A stretch of 52,069 nt of DNA. Source: a virus. Below the pieces are notes generated by a model, which had not been told where the DNA came from, searched no databases, and saw only the letters and a program-made list of their open reading frames with translations. The stretch lies in the IMG/VR virus record IMGVR_UViG_3300045973_001100, positions 1-52,069 of that record, one strand, 5' to 3'. Made by a program: the position numbers and the translations under genes. Shown here piece after piece: positions 6,088 through 50,682 of the stretch. How positions within the stretch are numbered: position 1 is the first letter of the stretch; every line of letters starts with the position of its first letter.

Positions 6088-6104
6088 CTTGATCCCAATG
6101 TTAA

Positions 6105-7028: not shown

Positions 7029-7039
7029 GTCTTTTCTCC

Positions 7040-8816: not shown

Positions 8817-8861
8817 CCACTATCTTAACGAATCTGTATCCATTCCTCACAACTATTTAGT

Positions 8862-9392
8862 ATGATGAGAAATGAGAATTTGTATACAAAAATGACTCAG
8901 GTAAGTATAAGAGGGCTAGAGCCCACTCGGGCCTTTTGGAGAGCTTTTATGAGTCTACTAGCTAGTCAAGAAACTCAGGAACAAATGGGCATGAAGAAAT
9001 GGAAAGAATTGATTCTTCAGCTCTATGCCAACGGAAAGACACAGGAATTGGAATTCTCTTCCTCTCTAGAGGCTGAGGAGGCACTCAGATCTATTCGATC
9101 TTGTGGTTCTTATCATCTTCCGGAAAGTCATCGTATAGAGGGGAGTCACAAGAAGGAAAAAATTCTAATTCGTGTCAAGAAGAGATCCCCAGAAGAGTTG
9201 GATAAATTGCATTTTGATAGATTTTCTGGGGTCAGATTCAGCTACCAAGACGGGGATTGGGATCTTCTCACCAGATCCTCTAGAGAAAAGGTAATTAAAC
9301 AACACTGGTCCAAACTGGGTCCTTGGGAAAAAATAAATATCATTAAAAAAATGAATTTTGAAGAACATCGTTTGTTGATTGGAATTATCTAG
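8862..9392 (+). CDS. Hypothetical protein in the plus-strand island, 176 aa
   Basis: The frame starts at tandem ATG codons (8862 and 8865) after an AT-rich gap with a terminator. The protein is basic and mixed alpha/beta, with MGMKKWKELILQLYANGK and an FSSSLEAEEALRSIRS segment. No nuclease or HTH motif is clear. It lies with the GIY-YIG gene in the only plus-strand insert of the head operon and ends at a bidirectional hairpin, so it may have arrived with the mobile element. The function is unknown. Confidence 0.6.
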   Translation: MMRNENLYTKMTQVSIRGLEPTRAFWRAFMSLLASQETQEQMGMKKWKELILQLYANGKTQELEFSSSLEAEEALRSIRSCGSYHLPESHRIEGSHKKEKILIRVKKRSPEELDKLHFDRFSGVRFSYQDGDWDLLTRSSREKVIKQHWSKLGPWEKINIIKKMNFEEHRLLIGII

Positions 9393-9405
9393 AATGATAG
9401 AAACA

Positions 9406-9431
9406 GGATGGCCCTCCTAGGAGGGCCATCC
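9406..9431. terminator. Bidirectional hairpin terminator between convergent genes
   Basis: A perfect 11-bp stem (GGATGGCCCTC / GAGGGCCATCC) with a CTAG loop lies 14 nt after the plus-strand 176-residue gene and 19 nt after the minus-strand 414-residue gene. Adjacent T-rich runs are weak in both directions. Its stem shares ATGGCCCTC with the capsid terminator at 6066-6087. Confidence 0.75.
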
Positions 9432-9449
9432 TCATGAACTTCAGTTCGT

Positions 9450-32104: not shown

Positions 32105-32162
32105 GAAGAACCCACCACTAAGAGAGTCAAAAATCTAGTAATTCTTTAAAAGGATGACGCGC

Positions 32163-33353
32163 ATGGACTCGAACCACACTTATGTAATGATAACCCGGAG
32201 TGGAGGAGCGGGAGACATTCTGATGATTGAACCCGTTCTAGAGGCTCTCTACTATGAATACGCTCCTGCAAGAATTATTTTGCGAACCGAATGTGACTGG
32301 GTGCTCCAAGATCATCCTATGGTTTGGAAGACCCTCAGGGACAATTATCACGGCACCACCTATGGAAAATTACCGACTGGTCTGATCCAAACAGATTTAA
32401 ATGGTTTGTTTGATGAACCTGTCACAATGTACCACTTTGATATGCACGAAGTTATAGAACAACTGTCGGGCCTCCATGGTGTAGAAACGTGGGCGGCGGT
32501 CGCCAATACTCGATTATTGAGGAGAACTCCTTCGTTTGGACACTACAATTTTAAGTCAAATGGTAAGACGGTTGTCCAATTACGAAAACGAGAGGATGGA
32601 AGAGACCTACAGAGAGAAGACTTGCCTATGGATCTACTAGGAGATGCGGTGTTTGTAGAGCCGGGGTCACTAAACCCGAAAGAACTCGTAGACTTGATTG
32701 GGGGAAGTGAACTCTTCATTGGTTCTGATAGCGTTGGCCTTCACATTGCTCACGCTGCAGGAGTGAGAAAGATCGTTGGCCTCTACTCCAATATGTATCC
32801 CCACACACTGAGAGCATATCGTGGAATTTTGGTGGCACGAAACAGGACAGAGCTCACAGAAAAAATTAAGATCGCCTTGGGAGAGGCAAAATACCCCGCA
32901 TACCTTAATGAAGGAAATGCAGCCGAAATGATTAAGAACATGGCTCTATCATATTGTAGAGGTCATGGATTAGATGTTGGATCAAGCCGATGGGAGCTAC
33001 CAGGAAGTATCCCCATTCCCTCAGAAGACTTTAGAGACAACTTTAATCAGGGGCCATTTGATTATATTTTTTCTTCCCACTGCCTGGAGCACATTGCTGC
33101 CTGGCAAGAGGAGTTAAAGTTGTGGGAATCCCATCTGAAGCCGGGTGGTATCTGCCTGATGTATCTACCTCATCCACGAATGGAAATGTGGTCACCAAAT
33201 GGACCCTGGGTTGGAGGAGAGCACAAGTGGGCTCCCTCTCCTGTGACACTTTCAAAATGGATCAATCAAAACACGAGTTTACGAGTTGAAGAGTATAGCT
33301 GTTATCCAGATGCCTACTGGAGTTTCTATATTCTTGCAAGGAGGAGCGCATGA
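32163..33353 (+). CDS. GT9 glycosyltransferase-like and methyltransferase fusion, 396 aa
   Basis: The start ATG 32163 has AAGG about 9 nt upstream; ATG 32154 would lie on top of that site. Residues 10-240 match heptosyltransferase-like GT9: RSGGAGDILMIEPVLEAL (12-29) and ELFIGSDSVGLHIAHAAG (about 183-200). Residues of about 265-396 are a class I SAM methyltransferase: HGLDVGSSRW (motif I), FDYIFSSHCLEHI, then LKPGGICLMYLP. The fusion would add and methylate sugars. It starts a four-gene operon with overlapping ends and lies divergent to the SprT-like gene. Confidence 0.8.
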   Translation: MDSNHTYVMITRSGGAGDILMIEPVLEALYYEYAPARIILRTECDWVLQDHPMVWKTLRDNYHGTTYGKLPTGLIQTDLNGLFDEPVTMYHFDMHEVIEQLSGLHGVETWAAVANTRLLRRTPSFGHYNFKSNGKTVVQLRKREDGRDLQREDLPMDLLGDAVFVEPGSLNPKELVDLIGGSELFIGSDSVGLHIAHAAGVRKIVGLYSNMYPHTLRAYRGILVARNRTELTEKIKIALGEAKYPAYLNEGNAAEMIKNMALSYCRGHGLDVGSSRWELPGSIPIPSEDFRDNFNQGPFDYIFSSHCLEHIAAWQEELKLWESHLKPGGICLMYLPHPRMEMWSPNGPWVGGEHKWAPSPVTLSKWINQNTSLRVEEYSCYPDAYWSFYILARRSA

Positions 33354-34105
33354 ACTACAACATGGTAGTCGACAGCGAATATGGACCAGTCATTGTAAAT
33401 AGAAATGACATTAATCAAACCGAATCTCTTTTAACCACTGGGAGGGGGGTAGATCACGAAGACATCATGTTCTTGTGCAACCTCGCTCGCCTGTGTGGAC
33501 AAGGAGTGGTCTGTGTGGACATTGGGGCCAACTTTGGTCTGTACACTCTTGCCCTAGCAAAAGCGGTGGAACCATTGGGAGGAAAGGTTGTATCTATAGA
33601 GGGACAACGTGTCCTAGCATATATGGTGTCAGGCTCTGTCTCTCTCAACTCCCTACAAAACGTATACGTCCGTAATTTTGTGATGGGCCGAGAAGGGGGA
33701 GTTATGCTCATCCCACAATACGATTACAACAAGAGAGGAAATTTTGGAAGTTTTGAGTTCAAGCCCAGAATAAACGACATCGGACAAGTGGAGCTGCCAG
33801 ACAATCCAGAAGAAAAAGTCTCTATTGTAAAGATAGATGCCATAGACTGGGGTCGTTTAGATTTGATCAAAATTGATGCGGAGGGTATGGAAGAAGAAAT
33901 TCTGGAGGGTGGGACAGAAACATTTACCCGCTTCAAGCCCGTCGTTTGGATTGAGTGGCTGAAGTCCGACAAGGGTAATCTGGTGCGCTACTTCAAGAAG
34001 TTGGGATATAACGTCTATGAACATGGATATGATTTGTTCTGTATCCAACCAGACAAATTTCCTGAAGTACAAGCGTCTCTCACTTGGGCCAGTTTCAATC
34101 TATGA
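33350..34105 (+). CDS. FkbM-family methyltransferase, 251 aa
   Basis: Residues 53-70 (VVCVDIGANFGLYTLALA) form the SAM-binding motif I of FkbM enzymes, and about 166-186 (LDLIKIDAEGMEEEILEGG) is the family hallmark. FkbM enzymes usually O-methylate sugars or small molecules. The gene overlaps the previous one by 4 nt (ATGA) and the next by 4 nt. It fits a glycan-modifying cassette with the two flanking glycosyltransferases. Confidence 0.85.
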   Translation: MNYNMVVDSEYGPVIVNRNDINQTESLLTTGRGVDHEDIMFLCNLARLCGQGVVCVDIGANFGLYTLALAKAVEPLGGKVVSIEGQRVLAYMVSGSVSLNSLQNVYVRNFVMGREGGVMLIPQYDYNKRGNFGSFEFKPRINDIGQVELPDNPEEKVSIVKIDAIDWGRLDLIKIDAEGMEEEILEGGTETFTRFKPVVWIEWLKSDKGNLVRYFKKLGYNVYEHGYDLFCIQPDKFPEVQASLTWASFNL

Positions 34106-34686
34106 CACATCTATATGGCACCCCAGCCAAACAGTATCGCGAACAATATGGACTAACTCTATTTGTTGAAACAGGATGCCATGAGGGGGAAGGATTAATC
34201 CTAGCTAAAGATTATGGATTCAAAGAAGAGAATCTATTTTCATGTGACATTCGCCAAGAAGCTGTTACTAACGCATATCAGCTATTCCCCAATGGTGGTC
34301 TTTTTATGGCAGCAACCAGTGTAGAATTTTTAAAGGTTGTTCTACCTAAACTGACAGATCCAACGCTTTTCTGGTTGGATGCTCATTTCCCCTCTTTTTA
34401 TGATGTAAAAGAAACAAAAGAAACTCGTTGGCCATTGTTTGAAGAGTTGCGACTCATTAGAGAGTTAAAACCCAATGTGGAGAGAGATGTGATTATTTGT
34501 GACGACACACGAATGTTGGTTAGTCCAAATAACCCCAACTATACAGGAGATGTTCCTGAGAATCTTGTAAAATATGTAAATGTCCAATGGGAAGAATTTG
34601 AACAGTCTTTCCATTTGACCCACACGGCACAAAGCATAAAAACAGACACCGGAATATTGGTGTTTCTCCCCAAGGATAAAATCTGA
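34102..34686 (+). CDS. Class I SAM methyltransferase-like protein, 194 aa
   Basis: ATG 34102 overlaps the previous stop (ATGA). The Rossmann-like motif I is FVETGCHEGEG (21-31). It is followed by LFSCDI at the end of strand 2 (acidic D49), and then LFWLDAHFPSF (about 89-99) and RDVIICDDTRM. These motifs are common in SAM methyltransferases of polysaccharide clusters. A sugar or protein methyl acceptor is likely; the substrate is unknown. The stop overlaps the start of the 925-residue gene (TGATG). Confidence 0.72.
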   Translation: MTHLYGTPAKQYREQYGLTLFVETGCHEGEGLILAKDYGFKEENLFSCDIRQEAVTNAYQLFPNGGLFMAATSVEFLKVVLPKLTDPTLFWLDAHFPSFYDVKETKETRWPLFEELRLIRELKPNVERDVIICDDTRMLVSPNNPNYTGDVPENLVKYVNVQWEEFEQSFHLTHTAQSIKTDTGILVFLPKDKI

Positions 34687-37463
34687 TGACCCAATGTCCC
34701 CTGTGTGCCACTCAAACTTCCCAGAAGTATGGAGACACCCCCTACTGGGCCTGTCCCAATTGTGCCCTTTGGTTCAGATCCCCCCTTCCTCCTCCAGTGA
34801 TAGTGGATAAGCTATCCACTCAGATGGATGAAAATGAAAAGGAAATAAATCTGGCCTTGGCCAAATCCATTCTGAGTCGGAGTGGGGTGGGTCGAGTTCT
34901 GGACATAGGATCTAATTATCCCTTTCTGGCCCATTGCTTTGAACAACTGGGTTGTGAGGCCAGTGCGATGGATTGTCTTCCAGGATTGCACAAGCTCGGG
35001 GAGGAGATGGGCGTCGACGCTTATGAAGAAGATTTTGAGCAATTTGTAGTAGACGAACAAAAATTCAAAATCATCACCATGGTGAATTCCTTCAACTACA
35101 TGAGAGATCCACTCGCTGTGCTACACAAGCTGAGGGAGTTGGTAGAAGATGATGGAATCGTATACCTTCGTCTCCCTGATCATGGCATAGATGGATTCGA
35201 ACAACACATTTCTTCCACTTCCACAATGGTACATCCAAATTTCTGGTCACAACCTAGTCTGTTGGAATTGTTAGTTCAGGCAAAGAATTTGTTTGTTATC
35301 AGTGGGTCTTGGCCCTTACAGGGTGGGGGGCAAAGAGATGTCATGCTCAAACCCATCACTGCCAAGCCCAAAGTCAGTTGTGGAATGATTGTCAAAAATG
35401 AGGAACGGGATCTCCCTAAGTGCCTCGAATCTATTAAAGATGTCATTGACAACCTGGTTATTATAGACACCGGCTCTACTGACAAGACTCAAGACGTAGC
35501 TGTCGCATTTTGTGTGCAGAATGAAATCCCTCTTCTCTATAAGATGTACACGGGATCATCCAAACAAGACAGCTCGGGTGATTGGAAATTGTGGGACTTT
35601 GGGACAGCTCGTAATCAATTTGTGCAAGAAATTGAACACAGCTCCATGAGAAATACCGACTATCTCTTATGGATGGATGCGGATGACAACCTCGTCACCT
35701 CCGCCAATGCCCGGAGAGCATTCTATTTATCTAATGTGGATGTAATTGGTATGATGGTCAGTGGAGGAGATGGAACCCAATGGGTACATCACAGAGCCTG
35801 GAAGACAGGACAGGGAATTGAATTCAAAGGAAGAATCCACGAATATCCAGATTTTGGAAATGGTATGGATAAGACCGTGATGGTTATGGGGGATATTATC
35901 ATTCATCATGACTCCGCACCCGGTTTTGGAGAATCTTCCAATGAACGAAATCTTCGTATTCTCGAATTGGACATGAAAGAAGAGCCCAACACAAGAACTG
36001 CCTTCTACCTAGCCAACACTCACAAGGATGCAGCACGGTGGCTCGATGCAGTCAAATACTACCAAATCAGAATTGACATGGGTGTGGGGTATAGAGATGA
36101 ATGGTTGTTTGCCTGGCTGTATAAGGGACGATGTGAAAGAGCAGCCAAACTGTACGAACTGGCCGAACGAACACTTCTCGGTGGACTATCCCATGCCCCC
36201 TCGTGGTCTGAGTTTTGGATGGAACTGGCCTATCTCAAATACGATCAGAAGGAATGGAATCAGGTCATTGGCTATAGCATGGAGGCGTTATCCAGAAACC
36301 CAGAGCACACTCAACTATGGAGAGAGCTCAACAAATACACCGATCAACCTCGTCGCATGCTCTCCTTCGCCCACGAATTCCTAGGGGACAAACCAACCGC
36401 TCTCTATTGGGCAACCGAGGCACTGAAATACATAGGAGTGGACGACACCGAATGGAACAATCGCATTCTTAATTTGAAGCAGGGGGAATTGGCTTCTCGT
36501 TTTCTGAAAAAGAACGTGAAGCCCAAGATTGCTCTCCATCGACCTGGAGCCATTGGAGACATCATCATGACTCTAAACCTCATCCCCATGTTGAAAAAGA
36601 AGTATCCCAAACACGACATCCACTATTATTGCAATGTGGGTATTGGAGAACAACTGTCCAGCCTGTTTACAGCGGTCGAAATTGAATGGTTTGATTGCTC
36701 TCATCTTGAAAGCAAAATTGGAATGTATGAGAAGGTAATTAATCTCATCGGCTACCCCCTTCACGAGGGATACCCCAATGTGCCAATGAAGAAACATCTA
36801 CTCGAGTATTTCGCCGATGAGATGGGACTGGGCACCAGGGGATTACCTCAACTCCATCTAGACTCTCTATCCCTAACTAATCTTCCCAATCGACCCTACA
36901 TCACCGTGCATCCATTGGCAGGGTGGAGTCTCTATAAAAATTGGGCCATGGGACGATGGGAAAAGTTAATTGAAGCCTTCCCAAATGAGTTGTTCATACA
37001 AATAGGGAGTGGGGCTGACTACAAACTTCAAGGAGCAGATCACAGCTACATGGGAACTGAGCTGTCAAACTCAATTGATCTGATTGCCAACGCTACCCTG
37101 CATCTTGGAATTGACTCCTTCTCCAACCATCTCACCCACTATAAGTGGAATGGACGACAGACCCCTGCCATCATCCTGTGGGGATCGACTCAATGGCAAG
37201 CAGCTGGCTATCCAGAAAATGTCAACATCAGTCTCGGACTAGAATGTCAACCATGCTTCCGTGAGGATCCAAAAATTTCTGCTATGCCTCGTGGTGTCTG
37301 TATTAATCCACCGGGGCAGACCGACTACAACCACCCTCAACATGCTTGTATGGCTGGCATCTCTGTTGATCAAGTAATTGACGAAGTAAAGAAGATATTC
37401 GATCTAACCACTGTCACAGGTTCAACCGGTGGAACAGGTCTCAGCAAGGACCCATCGGAGTAG
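34686..37463 (+). CDS. Multidomain glycosyltransferase: methyltransferase-GT2-repeat-GT9 fusion, 925 aa
   Basis: The N-terminus has a zinc knuckle (C4, C7, C23, C26) followed by a class I methyltransferase (VLDIGSNYPF, residues 71-80), as in sugar C-methyltransferases. Residues of about 226-420 are a GT2-like domain (SCGMIVKNEERDLPKCLESI, then IDTGSTDKT and DYLLWMDADD with the metal-binding acidic residues). Residues of about 430-600 are TPR-like helices (YYQIRIDMGVGYRD, then YLKYDQKEWNQV). Residues of about 613-900 are GT9-like (KIALHRPGAIGDIIMTLNLI, then VHPLAGWSLYKNWAM and LHLGIDSFSNH). The last 18 residues contain TVTGSTGGTG, matching the collagen-like fibre repeat. It ends the operon and overlaps the convergent RlpA-like gene by 23 nt. 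Confidence 0.85.
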   Translation: MTQCPLCATQTSQKYGDTPYWACPNCALWFRSPLPPPVIVDKLSTQMDENEKEINLALAKSILSRSGVGRVLDIGSNYPFLAHCFEQLGCEASAMDCLPGLHKLGEEMGVDAYEEDFEQFVVDEQKFKIITMVNSFNYMRDPLAVLHKLRELVEDDGIVYLRLPDHGIDGFEQHISSTSTMVHPNFWSQPSLLELLVQAKNLFVISGSWPLQGGGQRDVMLKPITAKPKVSCGMIVKNEERDLPKCLESIKDVIDNLVIIDTGSTDKTQDVAVAFCVQNEIPLLYKMYTGSSKQDSSGDWKLWDFGTARNQFVQEIEHSSMRNTDYLLWMDADDNLVTSANARRAFYLSNVDVIGMMVSGGDGTQWVHHRAWKTGQGIEFKGRIHEYPDFGNGMDKTVMVMGDIIIHHDSAPGFGESSNERNLRILELDMKEEPNTRTAFYLANTHKDAARWLDAVKYYQIRIDMGVGYRDEWLFAWLYKGRCERAAKLYELAERTLLGGLSHAPSWSEFWMELAYLKYDQKEWNQVIGYSMEALSRNPEHTQLWRELNKYTDQPRRMLSFAHEFLGDKPTALYWATEALKYIGVDDTEWNNRILNLKQGELASRFLKKNVKPKIALHRPGAIGDIIMTLNLIPMLKKKYPKHDIHYYCNVGIGEQLSSLFTAVEIEWFDCSHLESKIGMYEKVINLIGYPLHEGYPNVPMKKHLLEYFADEMGLGTRGLPQLHLDSLSLTNLPNRPYITVHPLAGWSLYKNWAMGRWEKLIEAFPNELFIQIGSGADYKLQGADHSYMGTELSNSIDLIANATLHLGIDSFSNHLTHYKWNGRQTPAIILWGSTQWQAAGYPENVNISLGLECQPCFREDPKISAMPRGVCINPPGQTDYNHPQHACMAGISVDQVIDEVKKIFDLTTVTGSTGGTGLSKDPSE

Positions 37464-37872
37464 ATTTGGGAACTCCTTGCACCTTGACTCTGGCCATGCC
37501 GTTCTCTGTGTATCCCAGATACTTAGCAGCTCGTTCAGACAGATCAAAATCTCGTTTTAATCGAGGATGAGGCCCTCTGTCTGTTATCATCATAACAACA
37601 GACTTACCCCCATAAGTCATTTTCACCTTTGAACCAAGGGGGAGAGTCCAATGGGCACAGGTAAACTTATCCTTATCAAAGAACCAAAATTCCTCAGGTA
37701 TATCCTTGCGGCCTTTAGAGGCGGTTGGTTTGCCCTGAAAATCATCTCCGTACCAACTGATGAGAGAGGGTTGAGCAGTAAGCATGTCCTTGACCTCAGG
37801 ACGTACAAATGCAGGTGGTGGAGTTGACGGGGCAGATCCTTGGAGGAGTTTTGCTCTAAATTTAAATTTCAT
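37441..37872 (-). CDS. RlpA-like double-psi beta-barrel protein, 143 aa
   Basis: Residues of about 37-135 fit the RlpA-like double-psi barrel: ISWYGDDFQGKPTAS (39-51), CAHWTLPLGSKVKMTYGG (72-89) with H74, ITDRGPHPR with the conserved Asp D98, then DFDLSERAAKYLG. RlpA proteins cut or bind peptidoglycan glycan strands. The N-terminus MKFKFRAKLLQ matches the 138-residue late protein at 4539-4955 and no signal peptide is seen, so it is more likely a virion part that acts at entry than a secreted enzyme. Confidence 0.78.
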   Translation of the reverse strand: MKFKFRAKLLQGSAPSTPPPAFVRPEVKDMLTAQPSLISWYGDDFQGKPTASKGRKDIPEEFWFFDKDKFTCAHWTLPLGSKVKMTYGGKSVVMMITDRGPHPRLKRDFDLSERAAKYLGYTENGMARVKVQGVPKSTPMGPC

Positions 37873-37891
37873 TTTGGCTTTCCTATTTGGA

Positions 37892-38248
37892 TCAGACAGG
37901 AGGAGCTAGTTTTGCAGCGATAATTGCGTCTATCTTATCGGCAATTAAGTTACCTAGGACGTGCTTACTCCCATCATCAAGTGTTACATTTTGATACCAC
38001 AGAAACATAATCTCTTCTGCTGTCAGGAGAGTGTTTCCTAGTGACTTTCGATCATAAATATCTATCTTATTGTTGTTTTCATCTAACTCATATGTGATAG
38101 ATTCCATCAAAATTTCTATTGGGTAGAGGGCTTCATAAAATCCCGTTTTAGGATTTTTATATATGGTACGACCAAGCCTTGTTTCAACAGAGGTAATCTC
38201 TTCCTTAATGCGAAGATTCTTCGTTTCAATTTGTTTTTCAATTGCCAT
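37892..38248 (-). CDS. Hypothetical fibre-module protein, 118 aa
   Basis: AAAGGA precedes ATG 38248. The protein has a charged N-terminal helix (IETKNLRIKEEITSVETRLG) and an alpha/beta body (LLTAEEIMFLWYQNVTLDDG). It lies between the RlpA-like gene and a fibre protein. A tail-fibre assembly or tip role is suggested only by position; no family is recognised. Confidence 0.6.
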   Translation of the reverse strand: MAIEKQIETKNLRIKEEITSVETRLGRTIYKNPKTGFYEALYPIEILMESITYELDENNNKIDIYDRKSLGNTLLTAEEIMFLWYQNVTLDDGSKHVLGNLIADKIDAIIAAKLAPPV

Positions 38249-38259
38249 TGTTATTTCCT

Positions 38260-38820
38260 TTAGAAGAAGGCGAAAAAGTCACCATTGACACCTGGATACG
38301 TACCATCGACCCAAACCTCGTAAATTTTGGCGGTGATGCTGTCTGCTGTTCCAGAGGGAGCACCGTTTGTTTTGGAGTCAAGAAAAACAACAAACCAACC
38401 ACCAGCAAAGTTGGGAATATCTCCAGTGCCAGTTATTTGAAGTGTTGTCTTAGTTTGACCACTGAGAGGAGGCCCAAATGTCTGTGTTCCTGTTCCTAGA
38501 GAGGAGGAAGTTGAATCGTAGAGGTCGATAACAATTAGACTCCCACTTGCTGCGGCCCCAGCTACGAGCGACCAGTCAATAGTAAAGTTAGCCGTCCAAG
38601 AGGTCCAGACCTTTGTCTTAGCTGGTAAAATGTAGTGGATGTAAGATGAACTGTTAGTAGAAAATGCAAAGTCCTGGGCTTGAACTTGTTGCGTGGCATA
38701 AGTAGCGGGATTGTTATCATAGGCGTTCGCCAAATTAGTATTTGACCGCGATACTGCGACTCCCGCATAGTCTGCAGAGGTATCTGAGGTGCTTGTTGGC
38801 CTGATGGTTTCAACAGCCAT
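38260..38820 (-). CDS. Fibre-module beta-sandwich protein, 186 aa
   Basis: The protein is rich in Ser, Thr and Asn, with beta-strand phrases (AYDNNPATYATQQVQAQDFAF, then SGSLIVIDLYDSTSS). The layout recalls a discoidin-like or carbohydrate-binding beta sandwich, as often found in fibre tips. GGAAGTG lies before ATG 38820. It is one of the run of small minus-strand genes downstream of the giant fibre gene. Binding to a host glycan is a guess. Confidence 0.6.
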   Translation of the reverse strand: MAVETIRPTSTSDTSADYAGVAVSRSNTNLANAYDNNPATYATQQVQAQDFAFSTNSSSYIHYILPAKTKVWTSWTANFTIDWSLVAGAAASGSLIVIDLYDSTSSSLGTGTQTFGPPLSGQTKTTLQITGTGDIPNFAGGWFVVFLDSKTNGAPSGTADSITAKIYEVWVDGTYPGVNGDFFAFF

Positions 38821-38824
38821 CTTA

Positions 38825-39175
38825 TTACACTTCCTGCGTAAAGGCGATCAAGTCCCATTTGGTGTCAGTACTGTTGTACTGAAACCCCATGTAGATGGTC
38901 TTACTCGCTGTAGTCGCTGTTGGTAGTGCATTACCCATGGCACGATATTGTGTACCAAAACTGATGGCTCTTGTTGTTCCACTGTCTTTCAGACGAATCA
39001 TTAATTTCTGGCCCTGCTGGGGGGTTCCGGTTGGGTTTGCAAAAGTGATGCCCGCTGTCTGAGCGGTAACTATGACCAGTACGTCAGTGGCAGCTGGGGT
39101 CACCGTTGCAGACGAGGTCACGACCTGCGCATTAGGTAGGACTGGATCAGAGGTTTGGTAGTTAGCTAGTCCCAT
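38825..39175 (-). CDS. Small phage tail/fibre protein, 116 aa
   Basis: The sequence resembles a common phage beta-structured fibre-associated protein: AQVVTSSATVTPAATDVLVIV, then LMIRLKDSGTTRAISFG and ALPTATTASKTIYMGFQYNS. AAAGGAG stands just before ATG 39175. Such proteins are trimeric fibre or tip parts in many phages. It lies between two other fibre-module genes. Confidence 0.65.
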   Translation of the reverse strand: MGLANYQTSDPVLPNAQVVTSSATVTPAATDVLVIVTAQTAGITFANPTGTPQQGQKLMIRLKDSGTTRAISFGTQYRAMGNALPTATTASKTIYMGFQYNSTDTKWDLIAFTQEV

Positions 39176-39184
39176 ACTACTCCT

Positions 39185-39646
39185 TTAAAAGCCGATCTCT
39201 GCCATAAGTTCTGGAATTGAGAATGGAATAGGGCCACATGATGAAAAATCACAAAGGGAGGATTCGAATATTTCAGTTATTTGTGGCTTCCTGCTGTAGT
39301 ACAGTGTCCAAACTGCCTTGATCCACAGTTCCACCGCTACACACTTTGGCTTACTTTGAAGAACTCCCACTGCTAAGAGTCCAATGGCGGACCCGCTTAT
39401 TTGTGCATACTCATAATCGTGAGCCGCTTGCCATAATTTTTCTATGTTGGCATCTATGGCTCTGAGTCGCTCTAATTCTGGACCGGGGCCAAGAGTGAAC
39501 ACTACTCCATCCCACGTGCCACCAATGCTGGTTTCCCCAGTTTCTGTTGTTATTTCAACACAAATTCTGGCATCATCAAAGAACGGAAGGAAGGACCCAT
39601 TCCCAATAGAAACCACTTGGCCGTCTATTATTTCAGCAAATCGCAT
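39185..39646 (-). CDS. Fibre assembly/tip-like protein, 153 aa
   Basis: The N-terminus (MRFAEIIDGQVVSIGNGSF) is typical of tail-fibre-associated proteins. The central helix NIEKLWQAAHDYEYAQISGSAIG and LLAVGVLQSKP recall fibre-assembly helper proteins. The start ATG 39646 overlaps the stop of the gene above it (TAATG). Function from position and pattern only. Confidence 0.6.
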   Translation of the reverse strand: MRFAEIIDGQVVSIGNGSFLPFFDDARICVEITTETGETSIGGTWDGVVFTLGPGPELERLRAIDANIEKLWQAAHDYEYAQISGSAIGLLAVGVLQSKPKCVAVELWIKAVWTLYYSRKPQITEIFESSLCDFSSCGPIPFSIPELMAEIGF

Positions 39647-40224
39647 TATTGCCTCGCACTTGGAAAAATTTCATATTCGTCCACACAGAGGAAGGATTGT
39701 TGGATTCCACCGTAGATAGTTCCACCACCCCAAACGGTAACTGTGTTAGTTCCTCCATTATTGCCAATTCGTACTGCAAGAGTTGTTGGAGTGGTGTTAG
39801 TGACAACCATGTCATACTCTAAGATCAATGGGAATGCTGTGTCAGCTCCACCCACCATATATGTAAAATAGTGGGCTCTTGCATAAACTTCGCTGTCTAC
39901 AAAAAGGGCAGCACCGTACTGATTTCCACCTCCTATTTTTGTGTCTAACTGTACTCGAACTCTTAAAAGATTTCCTGCCTTTAAAGGCGTATGTACAAGT
40001 GACAATACCTGTGCCCCTTGAGAATTTTGAGGAGGGGTGGAGGCGGTGGGTATGGAGGCGGCAGAAGAAAAATCTCCGTTCAAGACCACTTTGTTGGTTT
40101 GCACAAAAGCCACAGTCGTTGCACCAGTCAGGGTCACACTCCCGCTGGTCAGTGCCGATGCTGGGATGAGACTTCCTCCATGTCTTGGAAAAAAATTAAA
40201 CATGGAAGAGGGGAAGGCGGGCAT
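39646..40224 (-). CDS. Fibre protein, paralogue of the next gene, 192 aa
   Basis: This protein and the gene at 40224-40796 are tandem paralogues: both begin MPxFPSSMFNFFPxHGGS, share AFVQTNKVVLNGD / TFVQTNKVVLNGD, LSLVHTPL / LSLLHTPL, and end SFLCVDEYExFPSARQ. The sequence is beta-rich and Ser/Thr/Asn-rich, typical of a fibre head. The genes are coupled (TAATG). It probably forms part of the adsorption apparatus. Confidence 0.68.
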   Translation of the reverse strand: MPAFPSSMFNFFPRHGGSLIPASALTSGSVTLTGATTVAFVQTNKVVLNGDFSSAASIPTASTPPQNSQGAQVLSLVHTPLKAGNLLRVRVQLDTKIGGGNQYGAALFVDSEVYARAHYFTYMVGGADTAFPLILEYDMVVTNTTPTTLAVRIGNNGGTNTVTVWGGGTIYGGIQQSFLCVDEYEIFPSARQ

Positions 40225-40796
40225 TATTGTCTCGCGCTTGGAAAGGTCTCGTATTCGTCAACACAGAGGAAGGATTGCTGGACTCCACCATAAGTAGTTC
40301 CTCCACCATAGAGAGTGATGGTGTTGGTGGCGTTGCATCCGTACCGTACTGCAAATGTGATGGGGCTGGTATTTATAGCAACCATATCATATTCTAGAAA
40401 TAGAGGAAGGGCAGTGTCCGTACCAGATGGCGGATAAACAAAAAAGTGGGCTCTGGCATTAGTCTCGCTATTCACAAAAAGGGCGCATCCATATCCCTGA
40501 CTACCAGAGGTTTTTGAATCCAGCAAAACTCGTATTCGTAGTAGATTTCCCCCCCTTAGTGGAGTGTGAAGCAAAGACAGAGCCTGAGCGCCCTGCGAAT
40601 TTGTGGGAATACTGGCATTTGCGATATTAGCAGCAGTGCTTATATCCCCGTTCAAAACCACCTTATTGGTTTGAACGAAGGTCATCACTGTCTCCCCCGT
40701 CTGTGCCACACTTCCACTGGTTATAGTGCGGGCAGGTCCATAGCTACCGCCATGTTTGGGAAAAAAATTAAACATGGAAGAAGGAAATGAGGGCAT
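40224..40796 (-). CDS. Fibre protein, tandem paralogue, 190 aa
   Basis: I chose ATG 40796 because it overlaps the previous stop (TGATG). It aligns along its length with the 192-residue neighbour, with changes mostly in surface-like loops (ARTITSGSVAQTGETV against SALTSGSVTLTGATTV). The duplicate could allow diversified binding. No catalytic motif is seen. Confidence 0.68.
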   Translation of the reverse strand: MPSFPSSMFNFFPKHGGSYGPARTITSGSVAQTGETVMTFVQTNKVVLNGDISTAANIANASIPTNSQGAQALSLLHTPLRGGNLLRIRVLLDSKTSGSQGYGCALFVNSETNARAHFFVYPPSGTDTALPLFLEYDMVAINTSPITFAVRYGCNATNTITLYGGGTTYGGVQQSFLCVDEYETFPSARQ

Positions 40797-41206
40797 CAAT
40801 AGTCTCCGGCCACACATGAGAAGGCGATGCCAGCCGCTACTGTGGTGCCAATAGCAACATTGATTTTGTAGCCGGGAGGAATTGCTATGTTTAAACCAAT
40901 TTCTGTATTACCGATTCCGGCCACTTCGGAATTAGTGGTAGCTGGAAGTGTCGCGTCTTTAATGAGGGTGTTATTTGCTGGAGTGGCGTTTGTTAATCCG
41001 TTATTGATAAACACCCTCGCTACACTGGCTGTATTGGTCCCCGAGGGCTGACACACAACCTTCTGGACAAAGCCACCATTGGCTCCAGCGGTGTAGAGGG
41101 TGGCCATGGTGCCTGAACCATCTTTGGCTGTGTTGGCCGTGAGAACCACCTGTCCGGTTGTTATTACAGGAGTCAGTGGAAAGATCGGAGCTGTATTCGC
41201 AGACAT
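40796..41206 (-). CDS. Fibre-associated phage protein, 136 aa
   Basis: The sequence resembles a widely seen phage structural protein: MSANTAPIFPLTPVI, VLTANTAKDGSGTMATLYTAGANGG, ASVARVFINNG, then GYKINVAIGTTVAAG. An excellent AGGAGG ribosome binding site lies within the end of the giant fibre gene. It likely forms a small trimer at the fibre or baseplate. Confidence 0.65.
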   Translation of the reverse strand: MSANTAPIFPLTPVITTGQVVLTANTAKDGSGTMATLYTAGANGGFVQKVVCQPSGTNTASVARVFINNGLTNATPANNTLIKDATLPATTNSEVAGIGNTEIGLNIAIPPGYKINVAIGTTVAAGIAFSCVAGDY

Positions 41207-44200
41207 TTAAAAACCTCCTAAGAATTGCCATCCTAAATAGGATGCCATATTTGAGTTCACATAACTAGATGTGCCACCGCTGCTGAAAACTGTCACTCTT
41301 AGCGAACCGGTTGCTGGGGCCACAAGAAAGACTAGGGTCACTTGGGTTGTACTGGTACTTTGTATTTCGATACCAGAGGTCACTTGGCGCTTGCTACCAC
41401 CCACTTCCCAAACAGTCACGTTGCAGTCCGTGACGCCTAAATTGTGTGTCACAGGGATAGAAGTTGAAACACCGTCACCGATGGTTGTTGAGTAGGAGGG
41501 AGACCCCTGGGCAAAGTTACCTTGAGAGATTTTACGGACACGCCACATGGTTGGAGTCGTTGAATTATAGTAAGACCATGGGGTTCCACCATCATCTGCC
41601 TTAGCATAAAACAGTATATCAATATCTGTGGAGTTTACTTTTGCGATGCTGGGACCGGCTCCGTAGTAAGCGGTCCCATTGTAACCTGCCTGTTGTCCAG
41701 TTGAAGATAGTTCATACCAAGGGCCACCATTATAGCTAAACTCTAAAACAAGAATGTCAGAGGTTGCGATTGCTTGGGTGAATCGAACACGCTTAGTTAC
41801 AGAGGCGGATCCGGCTGGGGCGAATGACTGAATCAGCACACCACTAGCGCCATAACCGAATGAAGTTGTGTCATTAGAGGTTGTAGTAGAACTATTATAA
41901 GCATATTCAGTAAAGTTTGTGAGTAAATTAATGTTGGCTGTGAATTGGGAAATGGGAACCGTGAATCTCACAGTCAGAAGGTCCGAGCTGGCCCAACTAA
42001 ACGGAGATGCTTGACTGAGCGGTGTTATTGCATTGGTATTGCAAAAAACATAGTTACCCAAACTGTTATTATACGGAGTGGGTTCTAGTTGATACGTCGT
42101 TGTTGCACTCCCGTCATACGCGGACGCTTTACCAAGAACGGTACCATTAATCGTACTGTTGAAGAGAATGTGTGATGTGTCAATCGTATATCCCAAGGGA
42201 AGGCCAAACAACCACGTTCCAGTACCATACGTCGTAGAAGAGCCCATGAGGATATCGATGGATACCTCCATCGTATCACCGACCCTACGCCACTGACCAT
42301 TAAGTGTCCCATTATTGAGAACCGGGTCTGTACTGACTCCCTTCCATGTGGGTGTGTATGCGGTCCATGGTCCAACCGCTGCCGCTACGGTGATGGCATC
42401 CGATGCGGGGCCAGTTACTCCGTTGGCGATGGTCCTGGTCCCGCCTAGTGTTGCAGTGGCCGATGGCCAGTAACGGAAGAATTCAAAAGAGGTAGCAAAT
42501 GTGCCCGTACCTACAAAGTTGGTGAAGACACCGAAATAGGTTGGAGTGTACCCCAAGGAGGACGAGGACTCGATCCAGGTCTTGCCATCTTGTGACCATC
42601 CCCAGTAGTAGGTAGTGGATGATCTACGAATGCGTACATACTTGGCCTTAGAGTTATACCCATTTGCTATGAGGGCACCACCAGTAGTGAAGTTTGTGTT
42701 TGCGTAGGCACCGGCGAATCCACCCTGGGTGCTGTAAACCCCGATTTCGAGAACGGTTTGAGTTCCAGCACCTGCGGTGGTGCCGTTGGCTAAGATCAAA
42801 CCACCCGCATACGTTGGAGAAGAAGACTGAATGGCCTGATCCACCTTGGTAATGATGGTGAAATCTCCAGTAGGAATTGCCTGAAGAGCACAGATATCTG
42901 GAACGGTGTTGGTTGCCTTAATGAACAGACAGCCAGGGGTCGTTGTATTGACATCTGGAGTAGCGGAGGCGGAGGCCCAATTCACTGTCGTCCAAAGACC
43001 ACTAATTGCTCCTGCTACTTCAAACTCATCATCATACGCAGAGGGAGAAGTAGGTGGTTTGTCAGGATCCCAATAGGTGAACTGGTCCCCAGCGCCGCCG
43101 ACACCTGTTGGTCCGGTTATTCCTGTGGATCCTGTGGATCCGGCGTTGCCTGAGTTGCCAGTATTACCTGTGTTTCCAGGAGCTAGGACACCAGTTGTGC
43201 CCGTTGGCCCTGTAGCTCCTAGATTACCCGTTGAGCCTGTGTTTCCTGCACCACCTATGCCTCCTGTACTACCACTATTTCCTGTAAGACCAATCGAGCC
43301 CGTAGAACCTGTTGATCCACTATTACCTGTATTTCCAGTCACTGTTGAGGTTGGGCCAGTGCCACCTGAAACCCCTGTCTGTCCCACAGAACCAGTTGAA
43401 CCAGAATTTCCTGTGAGACCAGTAGCCCCCTGGCTTCCTGCACCACCACCACCCCCGGTTGAACCTGTAGCACCAACCGCTCCTCCTGCTCCAGTTGTTC
43501 CACTGTTACCAGTGTTTCCTGTCATTCCTGTCGGTCCGGTATTTCCCGTCACTGTGCTGGCAGGACCGGTGGAACCGGTATTGCCTGTCAAACCAACAGA
43601 ACCTGTGGCTCCACTGTTACCTGTGAGACCAGTAGCCCCGGTGGGACCGGTTGGACCGGTATTTCCCGTCACTGTCGAAGCGGGACCAGTTGAACCCGAG
43701 TTACCAGTGTTTCCTACAGCTCCTGTAGAACCACTATTACCGGTAAGACCTATGGAGCCTGTGGGACCAGAATTACCAGTTGCCCCCGTTACGGTGCTTG
43801 TTGGTCCTGCAGGACCAGTAGAGCCAGTGTTACCTGTTAGGCCAGTTGGTCCTGTCGAACCACTATTCCCAGTAGCTCCTATGCTGCCCGTTGCTCCACT
43901 ATTTCCCGTGTTACCTGTGACCGTACTGGTTGGGCCAGTAGCTCCACTGTTTCCCGTCATTCCAATCAAACCAGTGGTCCCACTGTTACCTGTTGCTCCT
44001 ACTGAGCCCGTTCCACCAGAATTTCCGCTGTTTCCCGTCACTGTTGAGGTTGGGCCTGTGGCCCCACTGTTACCAGTTAATCCTATGGCTCCAGTTGAAC
44101 CTGAGTTACCAGTGTTTCCTGTCTGTCCAGTAGGTCCTGTGTTTCCAGTATTGCCTGTAACAGTGGAAGCAGGACCTGTAGGACCTGTTGGTCCCGAGTT

Positions 44201-47200
44201 ACCAGTTTGTCCAATGCTGCCTGTCGCACCAGAATTACCAATGTTACCTTGATTTCCTGTCGCACCAGAATTACCTGTTAATCCTATTGCTCCTGTTGAA
44301 CCACTATTGCCAGTCAGTCCTATATTGCCAGTTCCTCCAGTTACACCTGTATTACCAGTTATGGTAGAAGCTGGGCCTGTTGCCCCTGAATTACCAGTCA
44401 TTCCAATTGATCCAGTTGAACCACTATTTCCTGTATTGCCAATCGATCCTGTTGAACCCGTCGGACCCGTGTTTCCTGTCACAGTACTGGCAGGTCCCGT
44501 GGCACCAGAATTGCCTGTGTTACCAATAGAACCTGTTGAACCCGAGTTGCCCGTAGCTCCCACAACACCAGTGGCACCTGAGTTACCAGTGGCACCGGTG
44601 ACGGTGCTTGTTGGACCTGTCCCACCACTGTTTCCAGTCAGTCCTATTGAACCCGTTGCTCCACTGCTCCCAGTGAGTCCAACAGCACCCGTCCCACCAC
44701 TGTTGCCAGTAGCACCTGTCACTGTTGAAGTGGGACCAGAAGCCCCGGTTGGTCCACTATTCCCAGTGAGCCCAATATTTCCAGTTGCCCCTGAGTTTCC
44801 AGTGAGCCCAATATTTCCAGTTGCCCCTGAGTTTCCAGTGTTTCCAGTTACAGTAGAAGTTGGTCCCGTTGCTCCACTGTTACCTTGATTACCAGTTGAA
44901 CCAGTCTGACCTGTGCCACCCACTGACCCAGTAGAACCACTATTGCCAGTCAGACCGATGGCACCCGTAGCTCCAGTCCCACCAATTGAACCGGTCGCGC
45001 CGGAATTGCCTTGGTTTCCGCCTGAACCAGTCGAACCCGTATTACCCGTCAGACCTATACTACCGGTTGAACCACTGTTGCCTTGATTTCCACCACTTCC
45101 AGTCGCTCCGGTCAAGCCGGTACTACCTTGAGACCCGGTGGAACCCGTCAAACCAGTACTTCCTACAACGATGCTTGCTGGACCTGTCGCTCCAGTCGCT
45201 CCTGTATTGCCTGTTAAACCAATCGAACCGGTTGAACCAGAATTTCCTGTAAGACCCATAGCACCAGTTGGCCCTGTCAATCCAGTATTACCAGTGACAG
45301 TACTCGAAGGTCCTGTGGCTCCGGAGTTTCCAGTCGAGCCTGTCGCTCCAGTAGAGCCTGTAACGGCTGTGAGACCAACCGAACCGGTAGCTCCACTATT
45401 ACCTTGAGACCCAGTTGGGCCTGTCCCTCCGGTTCCTCCAATAGACCCTGTCGAACCAGAATTACCGGTCAATCCGATCAAACCAGTCGCTCCGCTATTA
45501 CCTTGGCTACCAGTCGCTCCTGTCGTTCCGATTCCGCCAACTCCTCCAGTGGCTCCACTATAACCAATAGCACCCGTAATTCCAGTAGAACCCGTGTTAC
45601 CTGTAAGACCAACCGAACCGGTTGGACCAGAATTTCCGCTGTTTCCCGTCACTGTTGAGGTTGGGCCTGTGGCCCCACTGTTACCTTGATTACCGGTAGA
45701 ACCCGTTGAGCCTGTGTTTCCTGTGAGTCCGGTGTTTCCCGTCGCCCCTGAATTGCCTGTTGCTCCCGTAACCGTACTCGTGGGACCAGAGGCACCTGTG
45801 GGGCCTGTATTGCCTGTTAGACCAGTGGAACCAATTCCTCCAGTTGAACCAGAATTTCCTGTATTGCCAATCGATCCTGTTGCTCCGGAATTTCCTATTA
45901 GTCCCGTTGCTCCAGTGGCTCCGGAATTTCCTATTAATCCTGTTGGGCCAGTTGGGCCTGTATTTCCTGTTACAATAGAAGCTGGTCCAGTCGGTCCTGA
46001 ATTTCCAGTGTTGCCAGTAGCACCTATGGCACCGGTCTGACCAATTCCACCAACACCACCGGTTGATCCAGTATTGCCTGTCAATCCTGTTAGGCCGGTT
46101 CCTCCGGAATTTCCAGTTAGACCCATCACCCCGGTGGGGCCTGTTAGACCTGTGTTTCCTGTGACAGTAGACGAAGGGCCAGTGGAACCACTATTGCCAG
46201 TGGCACCTATGGAACCTGTTGCACCACTATTTCCCGTCAATCCTGTCTGACCAGTTCCCCCAGAGTTGCCCGTCGCACCGGTGACGGTGCTCGTCGGACC
46301 CGAAGCTCCCGTGGGGCCAGTGAGACCAACGGAACCACTGTTTCCGGTCATTCCTACCGAACCGGTCGCTCCACTGTTACCTTGATTTCCCGTGGAACCT
46401 GTTGGACCAGTTCCCCCAATTCCGCCTGTTGAACCAGAGTTTCCTGTCAATCCTGTCGATCCTGTAGATCCCGTTACGGCAGTGGCACCAACCGAACCGG
46501 TTGCTCCACTGTTACCTTGATTACCAACCGATCCAGTTGAGCCAGAATTTCCAGTCAATCCCGTGAGACCGGTTCCTCCACTGTTACCAGTGGCACCGGT
46601 GACGGTGCTTGTTGGACCTGTCCCACCACTGTTGCCAGTATTGCCAGTTGGGCCTGTGGCCCCACTGTTGCCAGTGAGACCAACCGAACCAGTTCCACCC
46701 GAGTTTCCTGTATTTCCCGTAACTGTACTGGTTGGTCCCGTTGCTCCGGAATTACCGGTCAAACCAATCGACCCTGTTCCTCCACTGTTACCAGTCAATC
46801 CGATGGAACCAGTCGCACCTGTTGCTCCAGAGTTTCCAGTTGCTCCCACGGCTCCAGTTGCTCCTGAATTGCCAAAAGAGCCAACCGAACCGGTAGAACC
46901 AGAATTACCTGTTAGACCAACATTTCCCGTTGAACCAGAATTACCGGTGAGACCTGTTGCCCCTGTGGGGCCTGTCTGTCCTGTAGAGCCGGTTGCTGTT
47001 GAAGCAGGACCGGTGTTACCGGTATTACCAGTTCCACCAACTCCTCCAGTTGAACCACTGTTGCCTGTTAATCCAATAGAACCAGTTGATCCCGTGTTAC
47101 CCGTTCCACCCGTCATGGTAGAAGCAGGGCCAGTGTTGCCTGTGTTACCAGTATTTCCGATGGCACCAGTTGAACCACTATTTCCTGTGAGACCCGTCGA

Positions 47201-49000
47201 TCCAGTTCCCCCAGAGTTGCCCGTCGCACCGGTGACGGTGCCAGTTGGGCCTGTGACACCGATTGGTCCCGTGGATCCCGTGGCTCCGGTTGGTCCTGTG
47301 TTGCCCGTTCCGGCATTCCCAGTTGGACCTGCTGAGCCAGTTGGTCCTGTCGAACCACTATTCCCTTGGTTTCCTGCAGCACCAGTGGTTCCTGTGTTAG
47401 CGGTCAAACCGGTTGAACCTGTTGGTCCACTGTTTCCTGTCGCACCGGTGACGGTGCCAGTTGGGCCTGTAGAACCTGTGTTACCTTGATTACCAGTGGA
47501 ACCGGTCGCTCCACTGTTACCAGTGAGACCAACCAAACCGGTTGGACCCGTCGGTCCGGTATTTCCCGTCACTGTGCTGGCAGGACCGGTGGAACCGGTA
47601 TTGCCTGTCAAACCAACAGAACCTGTGGCTCCACTGTTACCAGTCGCACCGGTGTTTCCAGTCAACCCAGTTCCACCTGAATTTCCTGTGAGACCAGTTG
47701 AACCGGTTGAACCTGTGTTAGCTGTCAGTCCCGTGGGACCTGTTGGTCCTGTCAATCCTGTAGCACCGGTTACTGTAGAAGATGGTCCAGTTGCACCAGA
47801 GTTACCTATAAGACCCACAGAGCCAGTCGCTCCGCTATTACCTTGGCTACCTGTTGCCCCACTATTTCCTGTGAGACCCACAGAGCCAGTCGCTCCGCTA
47901 TTACCTACAGCTCCTGCTGATCCTGTTGCTCCACTGTTACCAGTGGTTCCTGTCAGACCAGTCGCACCGGTAGTTCCAGTCAATCCTGTCTGTCCCGTTG
48001 GTCCACTATTACCAGTCTGCCCCGCTATACCGGTTCCACCTGTGTTTCCAACAGCACCGGTTGAACCCGAATTGCCTTGGTTACCCCCACCACCTATTGA
48101 ACCAGTCGAACCCGTTGCTCCTGAATTACCAATGGACCCTACACCACCCGTTGGTCCACTGTTTCCTGTCGCACCGGTCGAGCCAGTAACACCAGAATTT
48201 CCTGTTAGTCCGGTTAGACCAGTTGAGCCAGTGTTTCCTGTCTGACCAATTTGTCCATCAACACCCGTATTACCCTGATTTCCAACAGACCCAATTCCTC
48301 CCGTAGGGCCAGAATTGCCTGTGAGACCAACTGCTCCTGTCGATCCACTGTTACCAGTTAATCCGGTTGAGCCAATGGAACCCTGTGATCCTGTTGCGCC
48401 ACTGTTTCCTGTCTGTCCCACAGAACCAGTTAAGCCATTGTCGCCAGTGACACCTGTTTGACCTGTACTTCCCATTGGTCCAATACCACCCGTCGCACCG
48501 GTGACGGTGCCAGTTGGACCAGGGGCACCCGTTGAACCTGTGTTTCCTGTTGCTCCCACCACTCCTGTTGGTCCAGTCTGTCCAGTCACCCCAGCGCCAG
48601 CACCCGTTGGGCCCATAAGACCCGTTGGTCCAGTGGACCCCATATCACCGGTCGATCCTGTGGAACCAGTGATACCAATTCCTGTCTGTCCTGTACTACC
48701 CGAAGCTCCTGTCAATCCAGTGGAACCAGAGGCCCCCGTTCCACCACCACTAGATGCGAGTACAACCCAGTCTGAATTGGTAATACCACCAACCAATTGC
48801 CACGTGATCTGATCATTTGCTGTGTAACAAGCCAATCCCTCGCGACGACGAGCAGATGGGATGGCATCCCTCTCTGTGTGATCAGCTACTTCGTGGAAAC
48901 CACCCAGACCAAATCGAGAGTCATGTGTTGGATAAATATCTGACACATCGCTTGGAGCGATAAATCCTGTTACCTGAACACCACCCGTATAGCCACTCAT
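41207..49000 (-). CDS. Giant collagen-like tail fibre protein, 2597 aa
   Basis: Residues 1-84 form an N-terminal phage attachment domain ([19 protein letters not shown], then [15 protein letters not shown]). Residues of about 85-1965 are Gly-X-Thr/Ser repeats with few charged residues (GPTG, GNSG, GSTG, GATG units), interrupted about 28 times by GPxSTVTG or GTVTG, which break the Gly-X-Y register. The C-terminal 630 residues are folded: a ConA/DUF1349-like domain ([16 protein letters not shown], then [20 protein letters not shown]), a TWKGVSTDP...[10 protein letters not shown]-type module, and a final [16 protein letters not shown] module. It would form a long trimeric fibre that binds the host. 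It overlaps the upstream gene by 4 nt. Confidence 0.88.
43105..48748 (-). repeat. Collagen-like coding repeat array
   Basis: About 5.6 kb of DNA encode roughly 625 Gly-X-Y-type units, mostly with Thr or Ser in Y. Several 60-100 nt blocks recur nearly unchanged (for example 43540-43620 and 47560-47640), which indicates recent recombination or slippage within the array. Long open frames on the plus strand here are by-products of the repeat. Confidence 0.9.
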
Positions 49001-50610: not shown

Positions 50611-50682
50611 ACCATCCTCTACTTTTGAGCCCAAAAGTCTAAAAGGTGCAGCAGCCTAATAAGGGAATCCTGCTTTAAATTT

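What the first reader, a model, noticed from the sequence alone, without database searches (positions are those of the whole stretch)
32163..49000. Sugar-transfer operon next to a giant Gly-X-Thr fibre: candidate glycosylated viral collagen
Seen: a four-gene operon of glycosyltransferase and methyltransferase domains (GT9+MT, FkbM, MT, MT+GT2+GT9) lies just before the fibre module with a 2597-aa Thr-rich collagen-like fibre. Known: Gly-X-Thr collagen-like proteins such as Bacillus BclA carry O-linked sugars on Thr, and viral collagens can be glycosylated. Inference: the phage decorates its own fibre, perhaps for stability, immune or receptor purposes. An alternative target is host envelope glycan or phage DNA.
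Basis: partly seen in the sequence, partly recalled or inferred. Interest (0 to 1): 0.85.

Follow-up and report, generated by a model that had tools for sequence, protein, structure and literature searches.

The report
Phage sugar-transferases paired with collagen fibre
A large soil phage carries sugar-attaching and methyl-attaching enzymes close to its giant collagen-like tail fibre, and across many phages and bacteria this enzyme type sits beside threonine-rich collagens and not beside other collagens, so it probably coats the fibre with sugars.

Summary
The window is a 52-kb fragment of a jumbo myovirus related to Tunturiibacter phage Tunturi_5. A four-gene operon (32154-37463, +) faces a convergent 2,597-aa fibre gene (41207-49000, -) with 588 Gly-X-Y triplets, 60% with Thr at Y. 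The key enzyme is a 925-aa protein: methyltransferase + GT2 + TPR + GT9. Its GT2-TPR part folds confidently (pLDDT 95). Its best relatives of known function are peptide/protein glycosyltransferases: SunS, ThuS and the Listeria flagellin enzyme GmaR. Clostridioides difficile SgtA, which adds beta-O-GlcNAc to Thr of the BclA3 collagen, has the same layout.

I tested the link directly. Strong relatives of this GT2 occur in 16 of 123 viral loci with Thr-rich collagens and in 0 of 193 with Thr-poor collagens (p=1.5e-7). In loci chosen only by the GT, collagen genes lie within 1 kb far more often than chance (19 of 28 viral, 26 of 33 genomic; p=2e-4 each). An unrelated contig has the same four-domain enzyme beside two Gly-X-Thr collagen ORFs.

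Best explanation: the phage O-glycosylates Thr of its own fibre, then extends and methylates the glycan. The acceptor is well supported. The sugar, the extension and the purpose are inferred. No virion chemistry exists.

The parts
32154..33353 (+). Gene 1, 399 aa: GT9-like domain (weak) + class I methyltransferase domain
   Evidence: Pfam; 60% identical homologues in the same place in L001, L002, L005, L006, L009
33350..34105 (+). Gene 2, 251 aa: FkbM-family methyltransferase
   Evidence: PF05050 1.1e-12 and TIGR01444 3.6e-18, both above cut-off; 76-77% identical in relatives
34084..34686 (+). Gene 3, 200 aa: methyltransferase-like (low confidence)
   Evidence: No Pfam or NCBIfam match; model pLDDT 56, Foldseek hits mostly O-methyltransferases at E>0.01
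34686..37463 (+). Gene 4, 925 aa: methyltransferase + GT2 + TPR + GT9 fusion, the core enzyme
   Evidence: Pfam; 10 viral homologues plus G011
35376..36008 (+). GT2 domain of gene 4 (residues 231-441); DxD motif D331-A332-D333 at 35676-35684
   Evidence: phmmer ThuS/GmaR/SunS; motif nearly invariant in 36 sequences
35934..36485 (+). TPR superhelix of gene 4 (residues 417-600)
   Evidence: AF2 model pLDDT 95; TPR/OGT fold matches
36537..37400 (+). GT9 domain of gene 4 (residues 618-905)
   Evidence: PF01075 1.9e-6, above cut-off; a separate ORF in G006
41207..49000 (-). Giant collagen-like tail fibre, 2,597 aa: N-domain 48746-49000, Gly-X-Thr region 43088-48745, C-terminal domains 41210-43087
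   Evidence: 588 Gly-X-Y triplets, 60% Thr at Y; tail-fibre PHROGs; N-domain 39% identical to Tunturi_5 gp29
48997..50634 (-). 545-aa fibre protein with a short Gly-X-Thr stretch (second possible acceptor)
   Evidence: 17 triplets in one run; PHROG tail-fibre hits

Best explanation
The operon is a fibre-glycosylation module. The GT2-TPR part of the 925-aa enzyme works like C. difficile SgtA and Listeria GmaR: in the infected cell's cytoplasm it attaches a first sugar (most likely GlcNAc or another HexNAc/hexose from a nucleotide-sugar donor, metal-dependent through the DxD motif) O-linked to Thr, and perhaps Ser, of the Gly-X-Thr repeat, with the TPR superhelix holding the substrate chain. The fused GT9 domain, and perhaps the GT9-like domain of gene 1, extend the glycan. 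The methyltransferase domains and FkbM O-methylate the sugars. The finished fibre is a hydrophilic, methylated, brush-like glycocollagen; the likely purposes are triple-helix or solubility support and surface properties. Shown: domain make-up, predicted fold, conservation and genetic linkage to Thr-rich collagens. Inferred: acceptor residue, sugar, order of steps, purpose.
For: (1) GT2-TPR: best sequence and fold matches of known function are peptide/protein GTs (SunS, ThuS, GmaR). (2) SgtA has the same GT-A + TPR layout, lies immediately upstream of bclA3, and adds beta-O-GlcNAc to Thr in the collagen repeats (PMC7157674). (3) Specificity: strong GT2 in 16/123 loci with Thr-rich collagen vs 0/193 without, p=1.5e-7; by the longest collagen 13/106 vs 2/176, p=9e-5. 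(4) Adjacency in GT-seeded loci: 19/28 viral and 26/33 genomic within 1 kb, permutation p=2e-4 each; 57 pairs form 45 clusters at 60% identity and 12 at 40%. (5) Same four-domain fusion directly upstream of two Gly-X-Thr collagen ORFs in L109; MT-GT2 fusions next to collagens in L213 and L285. (6) Where the three accessory genes are missing (L003, L004, L007) the 925-aa gene is kept, and in L004, the only one of these with enough downstream sequence, a Gly-X-Thr fibre follows. (7) Tunturi_5: Gly-X-Thr fibre gp29 (homologous N-terminus) and GT2 gp35 lie a few kb apart and converge.
Against: No chemistry on any virion. 107 of 123 Thr-rich collagen loci have no such GT in the fetched stretch, so Thr at Y does not by itself mean glycosylation; Thr is common at Y in bacterial collagens anyway (PMC8968730). 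48 of 76 distant viral GT2 loci have no collagen nearby, so the GT2 type probably also serves other acceptors. In the window the two modules are on opposite strands, not one operon. In relative G011 the GT and the collagens lie about 19 kb or more apart, and L107 shows none in its held stretch. GT9 and FkbM are also typical of LPS or glycolipid pathways. SgtA itself was not aligned here.
Confidence: 0.77

Rival explanations
1. The module modifies host envelope glycans (LPS or other surface sugars) to block superinfection; its nearness to the fibre only reflects a host-interaction gene neighbourhood.
For: GT9 is named for LPS heptosyltransferases, and FkbM/MT are common in glycolipid pathways; GTs near tail fibres in pelagimyophages were read this way (PMC7029224).
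Against: Gly-X-Gln/Glu collagens also occur in phage contigs, yet loci with only Thr-poor collagens lack this GT (0/193 vs 16/123). No obvious membrane helix in any of the four proteins by a simple hydropathy scan, though LPS-core GTs are soluble too. The GT2 part resembles peptide/protein GTs in sequence and fold. Bacterial chromosomes show the same GT-collagen pairing.
Confidence: 0.12
2. The enzymes glycosylate modified bases of the phage DNA.
For: A known role of phage GTs, and the one proposed for GTs in the Nanopelagicales phages E7 and F5 (PMC10202952).
Against: The GT2-TPR fold matches peptide GTs; no base-hypermodification gene was recognised among the proteins of the fragment scanned against PHROGs, though the fragment is incomplete; the linkage is to Thr-rich collagens.
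Confidence: 0.03
3. The module glycosylates another phage or host protein (for example another fibre, capsid or flagellin), not mainly the giant collagen.
For: GmaR acts on flagellin; many GT2 relatives have no collagen nearby; mycobacteriophage capsid and tail proteins carry glycans (Freeman et al. 2023, cited in PMC12619734).
Against: Specific linkage to Gly-X-Thr collagens in unrelated genomes.
Confidence: 0.08

Closest known systems
Clostridioides difficile SgtA / BclA3 (PMC7157674)
   Same: GT-A domain followed by TPRs; gene next to that of a collagen-like protein; adds beta-O-GlcNAc to Thr (also Ser) of collagen repeats
   Different: 358-aa stand-alone spore enzyme; here part of a 925-aa MT+GT2+TPR+GT9 fusion in a phage. 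Direct sequence comparison not done (SgtA sequence not at hand)
Listeria GmaR, flagellin GlcNAc transferase (PMC9638930; PDB 22ao)
   Same: GT2 domain (profile E=1.3e-45) followed by TPR; protein acceptor
   Different: GmaR has an extra anti-repressor domain and acts on flagellin
SunS / ThuS peptide S-glycosyltransferases (TIGR04195; PDB 7msp, 7msn, 7msk)
   Same: Best fold matches over GT2 and the following helices; SunS is the SPbeta phage gene yolJ
   Different: Acceptor is Cys of a bacteriocin; the window protein scores 54.7 bits against a cut-off of 350
PBCV-1 A064R (PMC9614988)
   Same: Virus-encoded GT-GT-methyltransferase fusion that builds a methylated glycan on the virus's own structural protein
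   Different: Different GT families; N-linked glycan on the capsid protein of an algal virus
Mimivirus L230 (PMC9614988)
   Same: Virus enzyme that glycosylates viral collagen
   Different: Glucosylates hydroxylysine after its own hydroxylation; unrelated GT; eukaryotic virus
Mycobacteriophage virion glycosylation (Freeman et al. 2023, cited in PMC12619734 and PMC11256854)
   Same: Phage virion proteins carry glycans; phage-encoded GTs are the suspected enzymes
   Different: Capsid and tail-tube C-termini, not collagen-like fibres

Membership tests
GT2 (GT-A) protein O-glycosyltransferase with TPR, SgtA/GmaR-like | GT-A/GT2 domain with DxD motif | tested here: met
   PF00535 5.8e-7, above cut-off; D-A-D nearly invariant across 36 sequences
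GT2 (GT-A) protein O-glycosyltransferase with TPR, SgtA/GmaR-like | TPR superhelix directly after the GT domain | tested here: met
   AF2 model: 11 helices after the GT domain, matching TPR/OGT structures
GT2 (GT-A) protein O-glycosyltransferase with TPR, SgtA/GmaR-like | Gene neighbour of its collagen-like acceptor | tested here: met
   In the window about 3.7 kb apart and convergent; in relatives 19/28 viral and 26/33 genomic within 1 kb
GT2 (GT-A) protein O-glycosyltransferase with TPR, SgtA/GmaR-like | Transfers sugar to Thr/Ser of the collagen repeat | not testable with these tools
   Needs enzyme assay or virion mass spectrometry
GT2 (GT-A) protein O-glycosyltransferase with TPR, SgtA/GmaR-like | Sequence homology to SgtA itself | not tested
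SunS family peptide S-glycosyltransferase (TIGR04195) | NCBIfam equivalog score above 350 bits | tested here: not met
   54.7 bits: related fold, not a member
LPS heptosyltransferase (GT9) for the C-terminal domain | Pfam GT9 above cut-off and an equivalog heptosyltransferase model above its cut-off | tested here: inconclusive
   GT9 domain met; no equivalog cut-off reached, so donor sugar unknown
Collagen-like phage tail fibre | Long Gly-X-Y repeats in a tail-fibre protein | tested here: met
   588 triplets; tail-fibre PHROGs

The most novel reading that the evidence does not exclude
Phages widely carry dedicated SgtA/GmaR-like GT2-TPR enzymes, often fused to methyltransferases and further GTs, that O-glycosylate the Thr-rich collagen of their own fibres: a general class of phage glycocollagen, with multi-domain enzymes that build and methylate the glycan on one polypeptide.
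Probability: 0.68. Interest if true: 0.75.

Novelty: new variant of a known kind. Interest (0 to 1): 0.66.

Why it matters
Phage glycosyltransferases near tail fibres are usually read as host-LPS or DNA modifiers. A link between one GT type and Thr-rich, but not Thr-poor, collagens points to the fibre itself as the substrate. It might explain how uncharged, proline-poor collagens work without hydroxyproline, and it makes phage-fibre glycosylation testable now in the cultivated phage Tunturi_5. It would also matter for reading phage receptor binding and virion surface chemistry from sequence.

Tried and rejected
A viral search with the helicase found no relatives. The idea that GT-linked collagens have lower Pro or charge content (stabilised by sugar instead) was not supported: no difference from GT-free Thr-rich collagens; only the window fibre itself is extreme (11% Pro at X, under 0.3% charged). 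The unbiased Gly-X-Y sample alone gave only 4 GT loci of 107 (p about 0.02-0.04); the claim rests on the pooled set. A first tree used truncated domains and was redone; it shows that collagen linkage is clustered (32 changes vs 51 shuffled) but recurs many times, and it has long branches, so it is used only lightly. DNA glycosylation was rejected as the main reading: nothing but a known precedent supports it. The fold of the 200-aa protein stayed low-confidence. Freeman et al. 2023 is not held and is cited through papers that quote it. Literature searches found no report of this GT-collagen pairing in phages, but the library lacks most subscription journals.
Full report
WHAT THE WINDOW IS. The record is a 52,069-base virus contig with no stated completeness, by its relatives a fragment of a much larger genome. 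Its major head protein is 68% identical to that of Tunturiibacter phage Tunturi_5, a 309-kb jumbo myovirus of an acidobacterium, and it has a tail-sheath gene. More than 140 IMG/VR contigs carry the same head protein.

CHECK OF THE OBSERVATION. Four overlapping + strand ORFs run from 32154 to 37463. Pfam and NCBIfam give: a 399-aa GT9-like (weak) + methyltransferase protein; a 251-aa FkbM methyltransferase; a 200-aa protein without family match; and a 925-aa protein with methyltransferase, GT2, TPR and GT9 domains. The 2,597-aa fibre at 41207-49000 on the other strand has 588 Gly-X-Y triplets with Thr at Y in 353; charged residues are nearly absent and proline is rare. The two modules converge, about 3.7 kb apart.

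WHAT THE CORE ENZYME LOOKS LIKE. The GT2 domain's best solved relatives by sequence are ThuS, GmaR and SunS. With a 36-sequence profile they are the only GT2-domain hits among the 60 best, at E from 1e-45 to 2e-35; the rest are TPR proteins, among them O-GlcNAc transferases. The AlphaFold model of the GT2-TPR part has mean pLDDT 95, and Foldseek places ThuS and SunS first, about nine orders of magnitude ahead of the next hit. All three act on peptides or proteins. The wall-teichoic-acid enzyme TarS and polysaccharide synthases come much lower. A published enzyme with the same GT-A plus TPR layout, C. difficile SgtA, lies immediately upstream of bclA3 and adds beta-O-GlcNAc to Thr (and Ser) in the BclA3 collagen repeats (PMC7157674). 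I compared architecture only; its sequence was not at hand.

LINKAGE WITHIN RELATED PHAGES. The 925-aa protein has homologues in ten IMG/VR contigs, one of them (L010) sharing only MT-GT2-TPR, plus G011. Of 48 records with the same head protein or GT, 11 have the GT (Tunturi_5 counted through its GT2) and 15 have collagen; nine have both, and the two GT records without collagen end about 1 kb past the GT gene (Fisher p=1e-4, though relatedness is not removed). In three contigs (L003, L004, L007) the three smaller genes are gone but the 925-aa gene remains; in L004 a Gly-X-Thr fibre follows downstream, while L003 and L007 end too soon to tell. In G006 the GT9 domain is a separate ORF. In Tunturi_5 the collagen fibre gp29 shares its N-terminal domain with the window fibre, and a single GT2 gene, gp35, converges on that fibre module. 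gp35 is 43% identical to a Paracidovorax enzyme whose ORF lies 12 bases from a Gly-X-Thr collagen ORF.

LINKAGE IN UNRELATED GENOMES. An alignment of the GT2-TPR part was used to fetch distant relatives without regard to collagen. In viral contigs 28 of 76 distant loci have a collagen-like ORF in the fetched flanks; in 19 of the 28 it is within 1 kb, against 7.6 expected when another gene of the locus is drawn (p=2e-4), and 26 of 28 are on the same strand. In bacterial genomes the figures are 33 of 80 and 26 of 33 within 1 kb against 5.7 (p=2e-4). The 57 close pairs fall into 45 clusters at 60% identity and 12 at 40%. Contig L109 has the same MT+GT2+TPR+GT9 fusion directly upstream, same strand, of two Gly-X-Thr collagen ORFs. 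L213 and L285 carry MT-GT2 fusions next to collagens. The annotated phage DSL-LC01 has two Thr-rich collagen genes followed by a related GT.

SPECIFICITY FOR THREONINE. Three scans of viral contigs by DNA pattern alone (Gly-X-Thr, Gly-X-Gln/Glu, any Gly-X-Y) gave 316 loci with a collagen ORF. Using the most Thr-rich collagen of each locus, a strong GT2 relative (E<1e-20) occurs in 16 of 123 loci with at least 40% Thr at Y and in none of 193 below that (p=1.5e-7). Scoring by the longest collagen gives 13/106 against 2/176 (p=9e-5), and both exceptions also hold a more Thr-rich collagen. The 40% threshold and the per-locus maximum were chosen after seeing the first result, so the second figure is the more conservative one. 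This contrast is the main argument against the simple idea that any fibre region attracts sugar genes.

MECHANISM. Most likely the GT2-TPR part starts an O-glycan on Thr of the fibre chain before or during folding, GT9 extends it, and the methyltransferase domains and FkbM cap it. Fusion of several steps on one chain recalls PBCV-1 A064R, a GT-GT-methyltransferase that builds the capsid glycan of an algal virus (PMC9614988). Donor sugar, order, methylation of sugar, and purpose (fibre stability, hydration, surface shielding) are inferred.

LIMITS. No modification has been measured. Most Thr-rich collagen loci show no GT nearby, and many GT2 relatives have no collagen nearby. IMG/VR contigs are fragments and not independent samples. 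The literature library is partial, so 'not reported' means not found in it. Two papers on phages with both collagen-like proteins and GTs read the GTs as DNA or LPS modifiers (PMC10202952, PMC7029224).

VERDICT. It is a new variant of a known kind: SgtA-type collagen glycosylation, here phage-encoded and built into a multi-domain enzyme.

Noticed in passing
L285:10210-12312 and 1256-9772: A viral-contig protein fuses a weak methyltransferase domain, GT2 and a 2OG-Fe(II) oxygenase domain (the superfamily of prolyl hydroxylases) next to a 2,839-aa collagen: possibly combined hydroxylation and glycosylation of a phage collagen.
   Followed up: partly
L001, L005 and L009, helicase homologue of window 27279-29201: The helicase gene is split near residue 234 by about 0.8 kb in three relatives but intact in L003, L004 and L006: possible intron or inserted element.
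   Followed up: no
window 15795-19637: The tail-sheath protein is 1,280 aa, and the sheath match covers only its last third; Tunturi_5 has a similarly long one.
   Followed up: no
window 8013-8666: Homing endonuclease (GIY-YIG type hits) close to the major head protein gene.
   Followed up: no
window 37441-37872: RlpA-like protein between the sugar operon and the fibre; possible cell-wall role.
   Followed up: no
window 37410-37460: The 925-aa enzyme ends in a short Gly-X-Thr-like tail (VTGSTGGTG) that the L001 and L004 homologues lack; may be chance.
   Followed up: no
L596:2538-9080 (phage DSL-LC01): Two annotated collagen genes, a tryptophan halogenase and a glycosyltransferase close together on one strand: another possible collagen-modifying set.
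   Followed up: partly
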